Source: Polyangium mundeleinium | GTDB taxonomy: Bacteria > Myxococcota_A > Polyangia > Polyangiales > Polyangiaceae | Direction: 5' to 3' | Assembly: GCF_028369105.1 (NCBI RefSeq) | Contig: NZ_JAQNDO010000001.1 | Location: 5,052,501-5,116,500 of the forward strand | DNA length: 64,000 bases | In this document: piece by piece, positions 52,112-61,880 of the stretch | Numbering within the stretch: position 1 is the stretch's first letter | Layout: each line of letters begins with the position of its first letter | The notes under the pieces: generated by a model | The model's database searches: none | What the model was told of the DNA's origin: nothing | The model's input: only the letters and a program-made list of their open reading frames with translations | Translations under genes and position numbers: made by a program

Positions 52112-52190
52112 GGGCCCGCTATAGCGCCCGGTCCGCGGTCCGCGCAAGAACGCTGCGCCTCGGCGGGCTGCGCGCTAGCATGCGTCCTTG

Positions 52191-55100
52191 ATGCGAGGCC
52201 CCTCCCGCGCTTCGAGTTGCATCCTCGCGCTCCTCGCGCTCGCGCCGCTCACGTCGCTCTCCGTGACAGGCTGCAAATCGGGCGCCTCGGGCAGCGCTGC
52301 CCAGGGGGCCACGGCGCCCGCAACGAATGCTGCGGCCGTCCCGGAAAAACTCGTGTCGATGGTGTCGCCCTCGCGGCTCTTGCCCGACGTGCGCGGCGAG
52401 CGCGGGGTCGTCGCGTACGAGGCCGGCGCGCGGCGCGTGCTCCTCGATCGCATGCGGCTCCTCGTGCACGAGGACGGCACGACGGAGCGGGCGAACGAGC
52501 TCTTGCCGCTCGGTCACGTGAACGCCGTCGCGCTGCCGAGCCGGCTCGGCGGTGGGTTCGTCTTCCACGCGACGTCGGGCGGCGGCACGCAGCTCTGGCG
52601 GGCCTCGTCCTGGCTCGGAAAGCTCCGGCCGCTCGTGCAGTTCTCCTCGACGACGAGCGACGTCGTGCCGGGGTTCGACAGGCTCTACCTGCGGCTCTCT
52701 TCGAACGGAAAGCTCGTCGCGGTCGACGCCGAGTCGGGCGAGGTGCGATCCCTCGCGCCGCTGCCGCCCGCCGCGGCGTACGGCGGGCTCGCGTTCGCCG
52801 ACGGGTTCACCGGCGTCGTCGACGCGGATCTGCGCGGCGTGCTCGCGACCTTCGACGCGGGCGCGACGTGGAGGCCGCTGCAGCTCCCGGAGCGCCCCGC
52901 GGCGATCTCGGTCGTGGGCGACGAGCCGACGATGTTCGTCGCGGGCGGCAGGTACGTGCTCGATGCGCGCGGCAACCTGACGTACCGCGCGAACCAGGTC
53001 GCGACCGACGACGAGGGAGACCCGACCACGCCGGGCGCGCCGAAAGGCCCGTTCGGGAAGAAGGTGCTGCGCGCGGCCGTGGAGGACGGCTTTCCCGACA
53101 CGCCACGCACGGCCGTCGTCGCGCGGGCCGGGGCGCTCGCGCGGGTCTCGCTCGACACGGCCGCGATCGTCGATCTGAACCTCGCCGCGTTCCCCGAGCG
53201 CGAAGCGAATTGCCACGCCGTGCGCCTTGGCGCCTCGTACGGGTTCGTTTGCGGCGAGCGCGAAGGGCCGACGAACATCTACGCGTTCGTCCCGCCGCTC
53301 GCGATGCAGAAGGTCCTTTCGTTCAAGGGCCCGCGCTTCGTCTCGGCGAACGGCGCGGGCGCGCTCGTGGTGCGCGGGACGTGCGAGGACGGCGAAGGCG
53401 AGGCACGAGGGCCAGGCGCGAAGGCGCGCGCTCCCGGCGCGAGCGCGGCGAGTGACGCGGGCACGCGCGTGTACTGCGTACGCGCGGCGAGCGGGGCGAC
53501 GCGCGAGGTGCGGGTGAAGGGCGATCTCGGCGTCGAGCGGGTCGTGGCGCTCTCGGACGAGCGGGTCGCGATCCTCGTGCCGCCGCGCACGGGCAGCACG
53601 GGGCAGCTCACGATCCTGAAGGGCGCGGAGATGACGAACGTGCCGCTCGTGCTGCCGCAAAAGCCCCGCAGCGTGGCGCGCGAGCTCCGGCGCGGGATGT
53701 GGCTCGAAGGGTTCGAGGAGCGCGAGCCCGGCGTGCTCGGCGGCTGGGTCGAGTCGGGTGGGCCGGTGATCGGCGTGCGCGTGAAACTCGACGGCACGGT
53801 GACCGCGGGCGAGGCGCGCGACAACGAGAACGGCGTCGTGATCTCGGGCAAGTTCGCGTTGTCGCCGGGCGAGGGCGGGCGCGCGGCGGAGTCGATCGAC
53901 GGGGGCATGACGTGGAAGGTCTTCGACCTGCCCGAGCACGACGTCGAGCCGGGCGACGCCGCGACGCGCGCCTGCGGGCCCGTCGGGTGCGTGCTCGCGG
54001 GCTGGGTCCGCGTGGGCTGGGGCAAACCCGCGATCTCGGGGGATCTCGGCGCTGCCGAGGCGCCGCCTGCGCTCTACGTGCCGATGAAGACGACGCCGAC
54101 GGTGCGGGTCTCGTGCGCGCCCGTGGGCAAACCCGTCACCGAGCCGCTCCCGGACAAGCCTGCGAAGAAGGAGGCCGCGCCCGCGCCGGTGCCGCCCGTG
54201 TTTGGGGGGTTTGGTGGGGGTGGCTTCGGCGGCTTCGGCCGGCCGCCGCCGCAGCCGCAGAAGACGCCCTGGAGCACGTTCCGCAACCTACCCGCGCCTG
54301 CGCTGGAGAAGGACGAGGTCGGGATCGACAACGGCGCGCCCTACGACCTCGTGAGCCTGCGCGCGTACGCCTGGGGCAAGAAGGGCTCGGACTGGGCGCG
54401 CACGGGGCACTTCCTGGTGCGGTTCGACGATCGCTTCGATCCCGCGGGCGGCGTTCGATCCACGGCGACGAGCGCGCCGCCCTGGCCCGACGAGACCTCG
54501 ACCGCCGAAGGCATGGGCGTCGGCTCGTATCCGCTCGCGTCGTGGGGATCGTTCCTCGATCCGACCGGCCGCCACGCGCTGGCGCACGTGTGCCGGGGCA
54601 CGAGCTGCTCGTTGCTCGCGGCGAGCGAGGGGCAACCGGTGCTGCTGTTGCGAGACGCGGCGGGGCGCACGGCGGGGTTTGCAAGGCCGCTGCCGCAAGG
54701 CGCGGTGCGCCTCGGCGAGAGCTGGTTCCTGCTCGTGCAGGGCGCGTCCTACGACACGGTCGCGCTCTACCGCGTGGATCTCGGCGTCCTGCGTCTCGTC
54801 ACGTCGTTCTACCGGCCGAGCCCCTCGCGGTACGCCATGCCGGAGCCGCCGCGGCTCGTGCGTCGCGCGCTCGGGACGGGGCTCGGGTTGCTCGTGACGA
54901 GCATCCCGGAGCCGGGCGATCGCTTCGGCGGGATGTACGTGCACCCGGTCGATCCGGAGACGGGCGCCGTGGGCGAGCCGATCGCGCTCGGCAAGCGGGA
55001 TCTCGGCGGCGTGCTGCCGCCGCGCTGCGCGGAAGGTCAGGACGGCTGGCTCATGGACACGTCGCTCGACGCGTCACCTGCCGTGGAGATCCCCGGCGGT

Positions 55101-55319
55101 CGGGCCGCGCTCGACTCGATCGAGATGCGGCTGCGCATCGATCCAGGAGCCGCCTGCGTGGAGGGAATCGCCGCGCGCCTCGACGGGACGTTCGTGCCCG
55201 ACAAGGAAACGAAGGCGCAGCCCGCCGCAGACAAACCGTCGCCGGCTGGCACGGTGCCCCTCGCAGCGACGGAGCGATCGACGGGGCGGCGGTGGACGTT
55301 CGCCTGCAGTCGGCGCTAG
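52191..55319 (+). CDS. Large BNR/Asp-box propeller lipoprotein
   Basis: A 1042-aa lipoprotein (lipobox VTGC). The mature part is beta-rich and carries Asp-box motifs TFDAGATWRPL and SIDGGMTWKVF (S/T-x-D-x-G-x-T-W), typical of BNR-type beta-propellers such as sialidase-like and photosystem-assembly (YCF48) proteins. A Pro/Gly-rich stretch with GGFGGGGFGGFGRPPPQPQ near residue 680 separates two propeller-like halves. Scattered Cys (for example CRGTSC) may form disulfides. No enzymatic residues were seen, so a surface binding or assembly role is more likely. The ATG at 52191 follows a TTG directly upstream. It converges on the methyltransferase gene with the two stops abutting. Confidence 0.8.
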   Translation: MRGPSRASSCILALLALAPLTSLSVTGCKSGASGSAAQGATAPATNAAAVPEKLVSMVSPSRLLPDVRGERGVVAYEAGARRVLLDRMRLLVHEDGTTERANELLPLGHVNAVALPSRLGGGFVFHATSGGGTQLWRASSWLGKLRPLVQFSSTTSDVVPGFDRLYLRLSSNGKLVAVDAESGEVRSLAPLPPAAAYGGLAFADGFTGVVDADLRGVLATFDAGATWRPLQLPERPAAISVVGDEPTMFVAGGRYVLDARGNLTYRANQVATDDEGDPTTPGAPKGPFGKKVLRAAVEDGFPDTPRTAVVARAGALARVSLDTAAIVDLNLAAFPEREANCHAVRLGASYGFVCGEREGPTNIYAFVPPLAMQKVLSFKGPRFVSANGAGALVVRGTCEDGEGEARGPGAKARAPGASAASDAGTRVYCVRAASGATREVRVKGDLGVERVVALSDERVAILVPPRTGSTGQLTILKGAEMTNVPLVLPQKPRSVARELRRGMWLEGFEEREPGVLGGWVESGGPVIGVRVKLDGTVTAGEARDNENGVVISGKFALSPGEGGRAAESIDGGMTWKVFDLPEHDVEPGDAATRACGPVGCVLAGWVRVGWGKPAISGDLGAAEAPPALYVPMKTTPTVRVSCAPVGKPVTEPLPDKPAKKEAAPAPVPPVFGGFGGGGFGGFGRPPPQPQKTPWSTFRNLPAPALEKDEVGIDNGAPYDLVSLRAYAWGKKGSDWARTGHFLVRFDDRFDPAGGVRSTATSAPPWPDETSTAEGMGVGSYPLASWGSFLDPTGRHALAHVCRGTSCSLLAASEGQPVLLLRDAAGRTAGFARPLPQGAVRLGESWFLLVQGASYDTVALYRVDLGVLRLVTSFYRPSPSRYAMPEPPRLVRRALGTGLGLLVTSIPEPGDRFGGMYVHPVDPETGAVGEPIALGKRDLGGVLPPRCAEGQDGWLMDTSLDASPAVEIPGGRAALDSIEMRLRIDPGAACVEGIAARLDGTFVPDKETKAQPAADKPSPAGTVPLAATERSTGRRWTFACSRR

Positions 55320-57051: not shown

Positions 57052-60000
57052 TCACTCGGTCCACATCGACTCGGACTCGCCCATCGTCCGGTAGTTCGCG
57101 TCGATGTGGTTCATGAGCTCGAGCCACCACGACTCGAGCTTCGCGCCGCTCTGGAGCGGGCTCTCGCCGAAGAATGTGCCGCGGATGCACTCGGCCTTGC
57201 CGTCCGGCCCGACGCGGCAGCGGCCGTCGACGAAGACGAGGATCATCTTCGGCAAGCGGCTCTCCACGCTGTCCGTCGGCGCGTTCATGAACGTCTTGAT
57301 CAAGGTCGCCGCCGCGACGAGATCCTTCGGCTCCTGGCCGTAGCCGTGGAGCGCGTAGACGACCGGGTAGCGCCGCTCCTTCTGCGTCTTGTGTGCGTAG
57401 CCGGGCGGCAGCGCGACGCTGACCGGGCCGACGCGGCCGAGCGTCGATTTGAACTCGAACGAGCAGGCGCCCTGGACCTCGCACGCTTCGGCCTCCGGAT
57501 CCGCGTCGTCGTTGCTCTCCAGCACGAGCGTGCGCAGGTCCTGATCGGGCCAGCGCGAGCTGATGAAGTAGAGCGCGCCCTGCAAGCGGGCGACGAGCTC
57601 GTTCGCCGTGCCCACGTGCTGGCCGCTGCCGTTCTCGATGTCGTCGGCCGTCGGATCGAGCTTGCCGTACCGCTGGAGCACGATGCCGGGCAGATCCTCG
57701 TAGGGCACGCGCGAAGGCGCGTAGCCGTTCAAGTTGCCTGGCACGAGCTCGGGCTGCTGCGTGAAGTCCGAGAAGTACGTGACGTTCCGCTTGCGCGCGC
57801 CGAACGCGCCCGTGAGGTGCTGCGCGCTCACCGCGAAGTTGAAGAGGTCGCGCGTGCCGCCGTCGGTCCACACGTCGATGCGACGCAGCGCCGCGTCGTC
57901 GAGCTCGCCACCGGGCGGCGCCTCGCGCGTGATGCGATGCACGATCGAGTGCGCGTCGCGCTCCCAGAACCGGTCGAGCCCGCTCGCGACCGTGAACTTC
58001 CCGTCGCCCTCGCCCACGTCGTAGCCGTCGCCCGCTTTTTGCCATCCGCCGGGCGGCTGCTGCTTTGTGCCGGCCACGCCGTCGAGGCCCACGTCCTTCC
58101 ACGGCTCGCCGTCGTCGAAGCGCATGTTGCGCTCGGTGCCGCCCGGGTTGTACTGCGCGTCGTAGTCGTCGCCGGCCGGATCCTCGTTCACGCCGGGCAT
58201 GTAGCCGGGCTCCATGTTGCTCGGGATCCCGTCCTTGCCGACGTCGTCCCAGGGCTCGTGGCCGGCGCGGATGATCGGCTCGAGCTCGTCGCGCTTGCCG
58301 TTGCCGTTGTAGTCGACCGCGAGCGCGAGCTCGAGCGGGTAGGTGTTGCCCTCGGGGGTCCACCAGTTCGCGTAGGGCGTGCGCTCCTCCTTCTGCGGCG
58401 AGCCGTCGCAGACCGTGATCACCGGGAAGGTGCCGTCGGGGTTGAACTCGTCGTCGAAGTAGTTCGTGAGCGTGAGCGTGTTCGCGCAGCGCTCCACTGG
58501 GCATTTCTGCGCGAGCTCTTCCTGTTTGTCCTTGTCCGGCCCGTCGAGCGGATCGACCCACATCGCACACTCGTCCGTCGGCCGACCACCGGTCTGGCTC
58601 GCGTCGTCCGGACGAACGCCCGCGGGCAGGTTCTCCGCGCCGGGCGTGAGGTTCTCGCCGTTCGGGTTGCCGAACATCGCGGCGAGATCGCGGAAGATCT
58701 GCACGTACGCCTCGCGGCTGAAGCTGCCGCCCGTGCCCTCCCGCGGGTACTCGAACCACCACTGGTTGAAGACCTGCGTGTGCTCGTACGGGTCGCGCGG
58801 CGGCAGCATCCACGCGCACTTGCCGGGCGATCCGTCGATCACGCCGATGCACGTCTCGTCCTGCGCACACTCGGCGTTCGTCTGGCAGAGCGTGGGATCG
58901 AGGTTGATGTCGCCGAGGACCGTGCCCTTCTGGATCGGCCGGAATCCGCCGACGTAGTGGCGCTTGACCGCGTCGAGCATCCACGTCCAGTCGACCGGTC
59001 CGCCGAGCGGCGCGAGGGCGTCGAAGAGGTGATGGTGACGCATGCCGAACATGGCCGTGCCGCCGCCGCCCATCGAGACGCCGAGGATCGCGCGGTGCGT
59101 GAGCCTGCGCGGGAAGGCGTCCGTGCCCGCGTCCTTCTCCACGACGGCCTGGTAGGTGCCGAGCCGCGGCGCCTTGAACGAAAGCGCCCAGCCGTCGCCC
59201 ATCTTCACGATGCGAGCATCCGCGACCGGGACGACACGCGGCTCCTTGAAGGCCGGGCCCGAATACGAGACGGCGAGGTGCCGCAGGCGCGCCTTCTCCG
59301 GCATGCGCGCGGGGTTGATCGGGATCGTCATCGGCACGTCCCGCTGGAACTTCGAGGCGATGGGGCCGAACGTGACCGCGGGGCCGAGCGGGTCGTAGCC
59401 CGACGGGGGCTTCGCGTCGCCGCAGCCGATCGTCGCGTCGAACTTGGGGACGCTCCAGAGGAAGCTGCCCTTGTTCGGATCGCTCGCGCGCTCGGGCAGG
59501 CCGAGGCTCGCCGCGGCGAGGCTGCCCTTCGCGGTGATCGTCTTGCCGCCCTCGACAACGCCCGCCGCGCCGTCTCCGGCCGCGCAGGTGAGATCCGCGG
59601 TGCCCGCCGTGTCGAGGACCTCGACTTCGAGCGTGGCCTCCGCGTCGGTGCCGTCGCCGCGGGGCAGGAAGGCCTTTACCGAGGCGCTGCCAGAGGTCTT
59701 GCCGGCGACGACCGCGACGTCGAACCCGGCCTTGTACAGGTCGAGCGTGTCGCCCTTCGGCGCGGGCGTGATGTCCGCGCTCGAGGTCTCGAAGCGGATG
59801 GGGGTCTTCGTGCAGAAGTCGGGCTCGGCGACGAGGCGGACCGATCGCGACGCGCACGTCGCGCTCCCGTCCGCGCATTTCGCGAGGAACACGCGGCTCG
59901 GCTCGAAGCGCAGCTTGACGACGTCGGGCGACGGCGCAGAGCAGAAATCACCGGGCCGGAGCGTCGGCTCCGTGCCGCCGGAGCTCGTCCCCGGCGTGGT

Positions 60001-60111
60001 TTCGGTGGTGCAGCTCGGCGCGGCGACGGCGCCGATCGCGCCGAGCAGCGCGAGGACGAAAGCCGCGCGTGTGCGTGTGGAAGAAAAGCCCCGTAGGCGA
60101 GCGGATGTCAT
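57052..60111 (-). CDS. Esterase D-like alpha/beta hydrolase, apparently circularly permuted
   Basis: A 1019-aa exported protein (signal ends in VAAPSC, possible lipoprotein). Residues 40-330 are beta-sandwich-like modules. The hydrolase then appears in two parts. First comes the part holding the nucleophile elbow (RAILGVSMGGGG, S346), then a long insertion with Ca-binding-like loops, a probable Asp755 (GGTRDLFN) and His832 (GQHVG). Only after this comes the part that opens a normal esterase: PPGYAHKTQKERRYPVVYAL, HGYG (H922-G925, oxyanion region), LVFVDGR and DANYRT, where the protein ends. In a usual enzyme the NYRT segment leads straight into RAILGxSMGG. Thus N- and C-terminal halves are exchanged. 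Confidence 0.8.
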   Translation of the reverse strand: MTSARLRGFSSTRTRAAFVLALLGAIGAVAAPSCTTETTPGTSSGGTEPTLRPGDFCSAPSPDVVKLRFEPSRVFLAKCADGSATCASRSVRLVAEPDFCTKTPIRFETSSADITPAPKGDTLDLYKAGFDVAVVAGKTSGSASVKAFLPRGDGTDAEATLEVEVLDTAGTADLTCAAGDGAAGVVEGGKTITAKGSLAAASLGLPERASDPNKGSFLWSVPKFDATIGCGDAKPPSGYDPLGPAVTFGPIASKFQRDVPMTIPINPARMPEKARLRHLAVSYSGPAFKEPRVVPVADARIVKMGDGWALSFKAPRLGTYQAVVEKDAGTDAFPRRLTHRAILGVSMGGGGTAMFGMRHHHLFDALAPLGGPVDWTWMLDAVKRHYVGGFRPIQKGTVLGDINLDPTLCQTNAECAQDETCIGVIDGSPGKCAWMLPPRDPYEHTQVFNQWWFEYPREGTGGSFSREAYVQIFRDLAAMFGNPNGENLTPGAENLPAGVRPDDASQTGGRPTDECAMWVDPLDGPDKDKQEELAQKCPVERCANTLTLTNYFDDEFNPDGTFPVITVCDGSPQKEERTPYANWWTPEGNTYPLELALAVDYNGNGKRDELEPIIRAGHEPWDDVGKDGIPSNMEPGYMPGVNEDPAGDDYDAQYNPGGTERNMRFDDGEPWKDVGLDGVAGTKQQPPGGWQKAGDGYDVGEGDGKFTVASGLDRFWERDAHSIVHRITREAPPGGELDDAALRRIDVWTDGGTRDLFNFAVSAQHLTGAFGARKRNVTYFSDFTQQPELVPGNLNGYAPSRVPYEDLPGIVLQRYGKLDPTADDIENGSGQHVGTANELVARLQGALYFISSRWPDQDLRTLVLESNDDADPEAEACEVQGACSFEFKSTLGRVGPVSVALPPGYAHKTQKERRYPVVYALHGYGQEPKDLVAAATLIKTFMNAPTDSVESRLPKMILVFVDGRCRVGPDGKAECIRGTFFGESPLQSGAKLESWWLELMNHIDANYRTMGESESMWTE

Positions 60112-60167
60112 GGGGTCGGGAGAATACCGAAGCCGCGCGCCGCTCGCGACGCCCGTCATTCACCCTC

Positions 60168-61814
60168 TCAGGGCGAGGGCGGTTCGGGGTCGGGCGTCGG
60201 CTCCGGCGGCGGCTCGGCGGGCATCGTCTCGCCGAGCCCGGGGAGCACGCCCGTGATCGGCGCTTTTTCGACCGGCGCGACGATCACGCCGTCGGTCACG
60301 CTGCCGAGCCACGAGCCTTGCAGCGAGACAGGGACCGCGATGTCGTCCACCGTCGCGCCGGCTGCCGCGAAGATCTGGATCAGGCCGATTTTTCCCTCGA
60401 TGGCAGAACCATCCTGGGCGGCGTCCCACCGCGTGGTGAGCGCCTCCTGGCAGAGGCTGGCGAGGCAAGCGGCGTCGCAGGTGCCGAAGCTGACGAGGGC
60501 CTCGCCGAGCGCCGTGCAGCCCGCGATCGTCGCGAGCGCGTCGCCCATCGTCGTGCCTTCGGGCGCGCCTTCGAGCGCGACGCTCTTGCACGCGCCGCCC
60601 ACGTACCGCGTGGGCAGCCAGAAGATCTCGCCGCTCGTGGAGACGTTGTCCCCCGGCTCGGACGCGATCTTCACGAGGTGCGCGCCCGGCATGCCGGCCT
60701 CGTCGGCCGGGACGACCCCAAAGCGGCTCGGCGAGAACATGCCGAACCCGGGGACGGCCGTGAGCGCGGTCAAACGCCCGGCGAGCTGGGTCGGCGGCGC
60801 GGCCGTGCCCTTCTGCAGGAAGCCTTCGATCGCGTTGCGCAGCGACATCGGCTGCGCGGCGAGGTGATCCTTCGTGATCGTATCCCAGCCGCTTGCCGCG
60901 CGGGCCTCGGCGAAGAGCGCTGCATCGGGCGCGGGCACGCGCGCGGCCATCTCGTCGAGCAGCACCGCCGCCATCTCGACGTCCTTCGGCGCGAACCTGT
61001 CGAGCAAGCTCTTGCCCGCGGCGGTCATCATCGAGAGGAACGGCGCCTGCGCGGGCACGAAGTCGAGCGTGACGTCGAGGTCGGTCTTGCCGACGACGAC
61101 GGGTTTGTCGATGATGTTGACCTTGAGCGTGTGCGTCGTCCCGGCGATGAGGCCACTCGCGGTGGCGCAGCCCCAGGCGTAATGGCCGGCGCGCACCGAG
61201 ACCGCGAGCGTCGGGCCGACGGGCGCCTTCTCCACGAGCAGCGGCGCGTCGACCGGCGCGCTCTTGACGATGTCGGCCGGGGCGTCCTCCGGCAGGAGCG
61301 GCGCGACCGCCTCACACGTCGAGCGCGGCAGGACGCTGACCGTCCACGTCGTGACCTCACGTTTGCCCTTGTACTGGGGCAGGACCTGCAGCGTCGCGAA
61401 GCCGTCGCCGTTCACCGTCACCGGCAGCTCGGCCGCGGGGCCGTCCTTGATCCATGCGCGCAGGCGGTACGCCGTCGCCTTGTTCGGCGCGCGCATCGTC
61501 ACGGTCGCCGCGCCCTCTGCATCCATCGGCGCGGCCACGCGATCGAGCGTCGCGTCGAGTGAATCGCCGAGCAGGACGAACCAGACCTCGTCCGACGAGG
61601 GCGGGTCCGTGCGCACCGTGATCGTGGCCTGCTCCCGCATGCCGAGCGAAAGCGGCCCCTCGTTCGTGAAGATGAGCTGCGTCTTGGGGGCCGTCTCCAC
61701 GGGCGGCGACCAGGGCGTCTCCACGGTCATGTCGTCACTCGGGGCGCAGCCGAGGAGCGGCGGCCCCGCCGTGGCGAGGAGGACAAACCATGAACGTCGA
61801 TAAGGAAAGCGCAT
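60168..61814 (-). CDS. Hypothetical lipoprotein with Ig-like domains
   Basis: A 548-aa lipoprotein (lipobox PLLGC). The first half has Ig-like beta segments (LSLGMREQATITVRTDPPSS, ATVTMRAPNKATAYRLRAWI). A second beta domain follows (TLAVSVRAGHYAWGCATASG). The middle is helical. A Cys-rich region (CTALGEALVSFGTCDAACLA) leads to a C-terminal beta segment and a Pro/Glu tail. It is not a known family. The gene lies 56 bp upstream of the esterase gene and the two may be co-transcribed, perhaps with the P-type ATPase gene before it. Confidence 0.75.
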   Translation of the reverse strand: MRFPYRRSWFVLLATAGPPLLGCAPSDDMTVETPWSPPVETAPKTQLIFTNEGPLSLGMREQATITVRTDPPSSDEVWFVLLGDSLDATLDRVAAPMDAEGAATVTMRAPNKATAYRLRAWIKDGPAAELPVTVNGDGFATLQVLPQYKGKREVTTWTVSVLPRSTCEAVAPLLPEDAPADIVKSAPVDAPLLVEKAPVGPTLAVSVRAGHYAWGCATASGLIAGTTHTLKVNIIDKPVVVGKTDLDVTLDFVPAQAPFLSMMTAAGKSLLDRFAPKDVEMAAVLLDEMAARVPAPDAALFAEARAASGWDTITKDHLAAQPMSLRNAIEGFLQKGTAAPPTQLAGRLTALTAVPGFGMFSPSRFGVVPADEAGMPGAHLVKIASEPGDNVSTSGEIFWLPTRYVGGACKSVALEGAPEGTTMGDALATIAGCTALGEALVSFGTCDAACLASLCQEALTTRWDAAQDGSAIEGKIGLIQIFAAAGATVDDIAVPVSLQGSWLGSVTDGVIVAPVEKAPITGVLPGLGETMPAEPPPEPTPDPEPPSP

Positions 61815-61880
61815 CGAGGGCGAGTTTACCCTGGAACCAGGCCGGCGGCGACCTCTCTCGCGCACGTGCGGGGAGGTTTT

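What the first reader, a model, noticed from the sequence alone, without database searches (positions are those of the whole stretch)
57052..60111. Apparently circularly permuted esterase D-like enzyme
Seen: within one 1019-aa frame, the nucleophile elbow (GVSMGG, S346), a likely Asp755 and His832 come first, and the block that opens a normal esterase D fold (RRYPVVYALHGYG, then LVFVDGR and DANYRT) comes last, ending the protein at NYRT. Known: in canonical PF00756 enzymes the order is HG-G, NYxT, then RAIxGxSMGG, Asp and His. Here the C-terminal end of the protein joins logically onto its middle. An insertion of about 380 residues with Ca-binding-like loops sits in the permuted domain. I know of no described permutation in this family at this exact point, but I cannot search. 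If the join is real, this is a new topology for the fold.
Basis: partly seen in the sequence, partly recalled or inferred. Interest (0 to 1): 0.85.

Follow-up and report, generated by a model that had tools for sequence, protein, structure and literature searches.

The report
Naturally circularly permuted esterase, phylum-wide
A surface esterase-like protein has the order of its catalytic domain rotated, with the usual front end moved to the back; the same rotated design is kept in many distantly related myxobacteria and resembles one solved plastic-degrading enzyme that seems to have made the same rearrangement independently.

Summary
The minus-strand gene at 57052-60111 encodes 1019 aa. Its alpha/beta-hydrolase blocks run Ser346, Asp755, His832, then HGYG and NYRT; the chain ends 10 residues after NYRT. 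It is not misassembly: relatives from 25 anonymised families of the phylum (Myxococcota) were aligned, and 74 of 74 rows keep Ser, Asp and His. Against a profile of canonical-order esterases, 64 of 74 show both halves swapped and 0 the normal order; controls 17 of 17 normal. The predicted domain (pLDDT 94.7, pTM 0.94) aligns end to end with PHB depolymerase 2D80 (Z 12.3), while each listed feruloyl esterase matches one half only. So the topology is not new to the fold. By sequence, though, the family comes from feruloyl-esterase-like (CE1/PF00756) ancestors (E 2.5e-16) and shows no detectable similarity to a type-2 PHB depolymerase, which itself is a permuted type-1 depolymerase by sequence. 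Best reading: a second, independent natural permutation at an equivalent seam, in a lipoprotein-like ester hydrolase with an acidic-loop cap. Substrate unknown.

The parts
57052..60111 (-). Gene of the circularly permuted esterase-like lipoprotein (1019 aa; stop codon 57052-57054; an in-frame ATG at 60159 also exists)
   Evidence: the five same-genus relatives have a Met at the position equivalent to 60111, which does not prove the start
60010..60111 (-). Residues 1-34: signal sequence ending in a lipobox-like PSC (lipoprotein call is by eye)
   Evidence: C34 in 90% or more of 28 rows
59605..59943 (-). Residues 57-169: Ig-like (Big_2-like) domain
   Evidence: predicted structure; VIA match 7quz Z 9.3, 87 aligned, rmsd 2.0
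59122..59580 (-). Residues 178-330: ZU5-like beta domain
   Evidence: VIA match 4d8o Z 11.4, 133 aligned, rmsd 3.2
58957..59121 (-). Residues 331-385: start of the permuted domain (seam strand 332-337, beta5, nucleophile elbow, helix C, beta6)
   Evidence: DSSP of models; PDB alignments; strand names are my mapping
59074..59076 (-). Ser346 codon, nucleophile in GVSMGG
   Evidence: 74 of 74 rows Ser
57895..58956 (-). Residues 386-739: inserted cap with acidic Ca-binding-like loops, at the beta6/beta7 position
   Evidence: no PDB sequence relative at E<=1
57502..57894 (-). Residues 740-870: beta7, Asp755, beta8, His832, helix F
57847..57849 (-). Asp755 codon
   Evidence: 74 of 74 rows Asp
57616..57618 (-). 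His832 codon
   Evidence: 74 of 74 rows His
57055..57474 (-). Residues 880-1019: block that opens a canonical PF00756 domain (beta1, beta2, beta3, HGYG, helix A, beta4, helix B, NYRT), here at the C-terminus
57337..57348 (-). HGYG oxyanion motif, residues 922-925
   Evidence: His in 62 of 74, Pro in 12 of 74; both Gly in 74 of 74
57055..57096 (-). NYRT (1006-1009) and the 10-residue C-terminal tail with the second seam strand (1013-1018)
   Evidence: in 74 of 74 rows 11-29 residues remain from the column of residue 1003 to the end, exactly 17 in 49 of 74
60168..61865 (-). Neighbouring lipoprotein-like gene directly upstream, possibly co-transcribed
   Evidence: no Pfam match at E<=0.1; related frame in 5 of 17 neighbourhoods including the window

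Best explanation
The gene encodes a secreted, probably lipid-anchored serine ester hydrolase whose alpha/beta-hydrolase domain is a natural circular permutant of a feruloyl-esterase-like (CE1/PF00756) domain. The chain enters the domain at the strand before the nucleophile elbow (beta5), makes beta6, a ~350-residue acidic cap with Ca-binding-like loops, beta7 with Asp755, beta8, His832 and helix F, then crosses over and finishes with beta1-beta4 carrying the HGYG oxyanion loop and helix B, ending just after NYRT. The old N- and C-termini are joined through the linker around 852-880; the new termini lie in the loop between helix B and beta5, where the model puts two strands (332-337 and 1013-1018) that I infer close the seam. 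Shown: order, conservation, one predicted fold matching 2D80 end to end, sequence descent from CE1-like enzymes, no detectable similarity to the type-2 PHB depolymerase tested. Inferred: normal Ser-His-Asp ester hydrolysis, Ca binding, cap gating, lipid anchoring, and that the permutation arose once in this family and independently of the PHB depolymerase one.
For: Order test at 5 bits: 64 of 74 members hit the canonical profile with both halves swapped, 0 in normal order, 9 one half only, 1 neither; 17 of 17 canonical controls normal (the profile was built from them) and 17 of 17 artificially rotated controls swapped. Of the 64, the elbow piece begins at profile position 109-121 in 63 and the other piece ends at 113-121 in 42, earlier in 22. 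Profile of 74 rows against PDB sequences: 7xrt feruloyl esterase E 2.5e-16 and XynZ 1jjf E 8.3e-15, each in two swapped stretches; in 7xrt they meet at residue 145. Triad Ser/Asp/His in 74 of 74. Models pLDDT 87.1/pTM 0.88 full length, 94.7/0.94 domain. VIA: each listed feruloyl esterase covers model 544/559 to 690-692 or about 9-18 to 534-537 only, 2D80 covers 17-688. Relatives: 79 of 282 genomes of the phylum have a match, 4 of which I judged not family. dN/dS 0.18-0.28. hhalign of the family: canonical-order esterase L105 Prob 98.2 (C-terminal block), type-2 depolymerase L159 Prob 0.3.
Against: No structure or activity measured. A simple rotation raised the best-domain score in only 23 of 74 (mean 27.6 to 28.1 bits); I think because about 30 seam residues split the match. 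In 9 of 74 only one half, and in 1 of 74 neither, reaches 5 bits. 12 of 74 have Pro for the oxyanion-loop His, so part of the family may have altered or lost activity. Foldseek found nothing at E<=0.001 for the domain. A few other VIA rows have ranges that run past model residue 600 (2uz0, 4rot, 8rfb, 6trw; Z 5.1-6.0, 150-157 aligned), but ranges give only first and last aligned residue. The type-1 PHB depolymerase model also matches 43 of 74 weakly, best E 6.3e-5, at the elbow in the window protein. The independence argument rests on one type-2 sequence (L159) and the NF050059 model. Genomes outside the phylum could not be searched with the profile. I had no coordinates, so seam-strand pairing and triad geometry were not measured.
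Confidence: 0.85

Rival explanations
1. The family shares one permuted ancestor with type-2 PHB depolymerases (2D80 kind), and only the sequence has drifted: one permutation, not two.
For: Same order and end-to-end structural match to 2D80, Z 12.3, 245 aligned. Weak elbow matches of the type-1 PHB model in 43 of 74 members.
Against: The family profile against the myxobacterial type-2 protein L159 (which hits 2D80 at E 6.5e-60) gives Prob 0.3; NF050059 is not among the 15 NCBIfam models that match any of the 74 members up to E 1, a scan whose filters drop most matches above about 0.1; 2D80 is not among the 43 PDB sequences up to E 10, whereas CE1 enzymes lead that list in swapped order. L159 matches the type-1 model at E 1.7e-27 in two stretches, its C-terminal 206-304 on profile 8-94, and matches a type-1 protein of the own genome (L164, over the type-1 cut-off) in swapped order.
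Confidence: 0.1
2. Two half-domains from two degraded tandem hydrolases, or an inter-chain domain swap, rather than one closed permuted domain.
For: The two halves lie over 500 residues apart; a dimer was not modelled.
Against: One high-confidence monomer domain (pTM 0.94) that aligns over both halves to 2D80; catalytic residues from both halves conserved together; GxSMG and HGxG occur once each in the window protein.
Confidence: 0.05
3. Assembly or annotation artefact.
For: None found in the calls made.
Against: Same order in relatives from many independent genomes; purifying selection.
Confidence: 0.01
4. The permuted protein is a non-catalytic surface or binding protein that kept the fold.
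For: 12 of 74 lack the oxyanion-loop His; large appended domains.
Against: Ser, Asp and His invariant in 74 of 74, both oxyanion-loop Gly invariant.
Confidence: 0.12

Closest known systems
CE1 feruloyl/acetyl xylan esterases (PF00756), e.g. 7xrt and XynZ 1jjf
   Same: Sequence descent of both halves, GxSMGG elbow, HG-G loop and NYRT-like end; Asp and His by position in the fold
   Different: Block order rotated; ~350-residue cap between beta6 and beta7; N-terminal Ig-like and ZU5-like domains in the window protein
Type-2 extracellular PHB depolymerase, 2D80/NF050059
   Same: Oxyanion block after the triad (PMC2666664 and PMC7034887, passages); collinear fold match Z 12.3
   Different: No detectable sequence relation; 2D80 chain is only 318 residues, so no cap of this size; different parent family by sequence
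Type-1 PHB depolymerase (NF050058) and S-formylglutathione hydrolase (TIGR02821)
   Same: Weak matches: NF050058 in 43 and TIGR02821 in 29 of 74 members
   Different: Window protein scores 16.1 and 15.8 bits against cut-offs of 150 and 281.7; their order is canonical

Membership tests
PF00756 / CE1 esterase | Score above the Pfam cut-off | tested here: met
   28.2 against 22 bits; 69 of 74 members match at E<=0.01
PF00756 / CE1 esterase | Ser, Asp, His triad | tested here: met
   74 of 74 rows; geometry not measured
PF00756 / CE1 esterase | HG-G oxyanion loop | tested here: met
   Window protein HGYG; in the family 62 of 74 His, 12 of 74 Pro
PF00756 / CE1 esterase | Canonical linear order, oxyanion block first | tested here: not met
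   0 of 74 canonical, 64 of 74 swapped, 10 of 74 undecided at 5 bits. So it is a permuted derivative, not a plain member
PF00756 / CE1 esterase | Ester hydrolysis | not testable with these tools
   needs a bench assay
Type-2 PHB depolymerase (NF050059, 2D80) | Permuted order and fold | tested here: met
   VIA Z 12.3, model 17-688 on chain 30-338
Type-2 PHB depolymerase (NF050059, 2D80) | Sequence similarity to the family model | tested here: not met
   Not among the 15 NCBIfam models matched up to E 1; hhalign Prob 0.3 with L159; the window gene is not among the 2 own-genome matches
Type-2 PHB depolymerase (NF050059, 2D80) | PHB hydrolysis | not testable with these tools
   needs a bench assay

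The most novel reading that the evidence does not exclude
Probability: 0.75. Interest if true: 0.68.

Novelty: new variant of a known kind. Interest (0 to 1): 0.62.

Why it matters
[quoted passage not shown] A second, apparently independent case with the cut at the equivalent seam suggests that this fold has a preferred place where termini can be moved without losing the active site, which can be tested directly by permuting a canonical CE1 enzyme at that loop. It also shows why profile searches half-annotate this family: Pfam sees only fragments of PF00756.

Tried and rejected
Foldseek and VIA with the full-length model returned N-terminal-domain matches, so the hydrolase was folded alone. 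Foldseek with the domain gave nothing at E<=0.001; VIA, a second look at Foldseek's top 1000 chains, gave the 2D80 match. Scoring of simply rotated sequences was uninformative and was replaced by the order test on the same data. Collecting canonical esterases by motif found 1 and few; one search took them from the match coordinates instead (32 collected with L100 and L105, 17 after removal of near-duplicates). Relatives outside the phylum: plasmids gave 2 Novosphingobium records covering 11-12% of the query, order not examined; viral contigs gave none; the genome-contig scan uses exact peptide patterns and returned 5 near relatives. Profile matches in L098, L099, L101 are LptD-like barrels by eye with similar acidic loops; L100, L103 and L105 are canonical-order esterases by eye. 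Cap alone: no PDB sequence match at E<=1; its fold was not searched alone.

Literature: I saw listings only, capped, (for example 20 of 299 papers, 20 of 113, 25 of 54), and no listed title or abstract start describes a permuted PF00756/CE1 enzyme; the library holds open papers only. Passages were seen of PMC11878206 (and its section 25), PMC2666664, PMC7034887 and PMC11757225.

Rows dropped: from the domain alignment A2 (window plus 73) I left out L094 (frame open at the contig end), L015 and L102 (elbow missing) and near-duplicates of the same genus (L002-L005, L031-L034) and re-fetched copies; several family matches were never fetched. The count of 25 anonymised families was made by hand for the A2 rows; L035 has no family label and was not counted.

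Full report
What is there. The gene lies on the minus strand, 57052-60111, 1019 aa. It has one match in its own 13.25-Mb genome at E<=0.001. The nearest named relative is Polyangium fumosum (Myxococcota, Polyangiaceae). Pfam finds PF00756, 28.2 bits, two stretches at E<=10 of which one (890-967) is printed. PDB sequence search with the single protein already showed the crossing: query 338-408 on ferulic acid esterase 7xrt 145-215, and, weakly (6.3 bits), query 890-933 on 7xrt 38-78.

Conservation. 35 of 59 genomes (own plus relatives) have a match at E<=1e-10, and 79 of 282 genomes of the phylum at E<=1e-5 with the profile; I judged four of these (G100, G104, G160, G270) not to be family members after reading their frames. 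The 28-row alignment keeps S346, D755, H832 and H922-G-Y-G in every row. In the 74-row alignment (window plus 73, 25 anonymised families counted by hand) S346, D755, H832, G923, G925, C965 and C975 are in 74 of 74, while H922 is His in 62 and Pro in 12. The 73 fetched frames of that alignment all end in a stop codon inside the locus, and 11-29 residues remain from the column of residue 1003 to the end, exactly 17 in 49 of 74, so the position of the C-terminus is itself conserved. Relatives with only about 80 residues of frame before the elbow exist (L078, elbow at 78 of 715 aa), so the permuted domain does not depend on the N-terminal domains.

Test of the permutation. A profile of 17 non-redundant canonical-order esterases from the phylum was run on the 74 members. 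At 5 bits, 64 of 74 have both halves in swapped order, 0 in canonical order, 9 only one half, 1 none; at 0 bits 70, 0, 4 and 0. Controls: 17 of 17 canonical proteins in normal order (they built the profile) and 17 of 17 artificially rotated ones swapped. Among the 64, the elbow piece begins at profile position 109-121 in 63; the other piece ends at 113-121 in 42 and earlier (36-102) in 22, where the alignment stops short. A plain rotation without removal of the seam did not raise scores in most members (23 of 74). For the window protein, canonical order with the insert left out gives one PF00756 stretch of 38.6 bits, native order of the same pieces 31.2. The 74-row profile hits 43 PDB sequences up to E 10, led by feruloyl esterases (7xrt E 2.5e-16; 1jjf 8.3e-15); in 7xrt the profile's 477-616 lies on residues 27-145 and its 18-61 on 145-187.

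Structure. Full-length model: pLDDT 87.1, pTM 0.88. Domain 321-1019 with 74 rows: pLDDT 94.7, pTM 0.94. Secondary-structure order is seam strand, beta5, elbow helix, beta6, helix, cap, beta7, beta8, helix F, linker, beta1, beta2, beta3, helix A, beta4, helix B, seam strand; the strand names are my mapping, and I left short elements out. VIA-align: 2D80/2D81 PHB depolymerase Z 12.3/12.2 with 245/249 residues over model 17-688 and chain 30-338; the next rows (8bf3, 8bbp, 6rzn, 7b6b) have Z 7.6-7.7 and cover model 544/559-691 only; others such as 9j1e or 1jt2 cover model 16/18-534 only. Four further rows (2uz0, 4rot, 8rfb, 6trw) have ranges running past 600 at Z 5.1-6.0 with 150-157 residues aligned; ranges name only first and last aligned residue. 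Foldseek, which is sequential, gave nothing at E<=0.001; its best row is 1jjf, E 4.9e-3, 159 alignment columns. Thus the predicted topology equals that of 2D80.

Relation to type-2 PHB depolymerases. [quoted passage not shown] PMC7034887 (passages) lists Ser39 for 2D80 and His155 and Cys250/Leu251 among the ligand contacts of 2D81. That the 2D80 paper itself calls the enzyme a circularly permuted variant is recall; it is not held. PMC11878206 (passages and section 25) mentions permutation in other hydrolases for strands beta1 and beta2. To ask about common origin I found a myxobacterial type-2 protein (L159; 384.8 bits against a cut-off of 280), which hits 2D80 at E 6.5e-60. The permuted family shows no similarity to it (hhalign Prob 0.3), but Prob 98.2 with a canonical-order esterase (L105, C-terminal block only). 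L159 matches the type-1 model at E 1.7e-27 in two stretches (the printed one puts its C-terminal 206-304 on profile 8-94), and L159 and a type-1 protein of the own genome (L164, 263 bits against 150) match in swapped order by BLASTP. So type 2 looks like a permuted type 1, and this family like a permuted CE1: two permutations, from two parents, at an equivalent seam. Sequence divergence could still hide one origin, so I put about 10% on that.

How it probably works. From the motifs: a secreted protein with a lipobox-like PSC, an Ig-like and a ZU5-like domain, and a hydrolase acting by Ser346-His832-Asp755 with the HGYG loop as oxyanion hole. The cap sits between beta6 and beta7; PMC11878206 (passages) says caps and lids are often located after strand 6. 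Its invariant Asp/Glu/Gly columns suggest Ca binding, untested. Substrate is unknown; CE1 descent and the 2D80-like topology both point to ester bonds in a polymer, which is inference. Neighbours give little: a lipoprotein-like gene directly upstream recurs in 5 of 17 neighbourhoods and a 1043-aa secreted protein with weak PQQ_2/BNR matches (below cut-off) in 6 of 17, window included.

Verdict. The claim of a new topology for the fold is wrong because 2D80 has it. New variant of a known kind. Limits: genomes outside the phylum could not be searched with the profile; no coordinates; no bench data.

Noticed in passing
window 59122-59580 (-), residues 178-330: ZU5-like domain (ankyrin/UNC5 kind) in a bacterial lipoprotein-like protein: VIA Z 11.4 to 4d8o, 133 aligned. 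No Pfam match to it.
   Followed up: no
L098, L099, L101: LptD-like outer-membrane barrels (name by eye) carry acidic loops much like those of the cap (NPDPxxDD, NPGGxEGNGxxDxGEP).
   Followed up: no
A2 members such as L062, L065, L068, L072: A DNDGDG-type stretch is inserted after the DG-C of the C-terminal block; an acidic double-disulfide repeat model (NF033662) matches 9 of 74 members, which I take to be this stretch.
   Followed up: no
L082-L088, L091-L093, L095, L096: Oxyanion-loop His replaced by Pro in 12 of 74 members, all from two anonymised families, f28 and f50.
   Followed up: partly
L159 and L164 (own genome C1:9625443-9626042): Type-2 PHB depolymerase and a canonical-order type-1 depolymerase match in swapped order, so type 2 is itself a permutant visible by sequence.
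   Followed up: yes
window 60168-61865 (-) and 52188-55319 (+): Unnamed lipoprotein-like gene directly upstream (related frame in 5 of 17 neighbourhoods) and a 1043-aa secreted protein with weak PQQ_2/BNR matches (6 of 17).
   Followed up: partly
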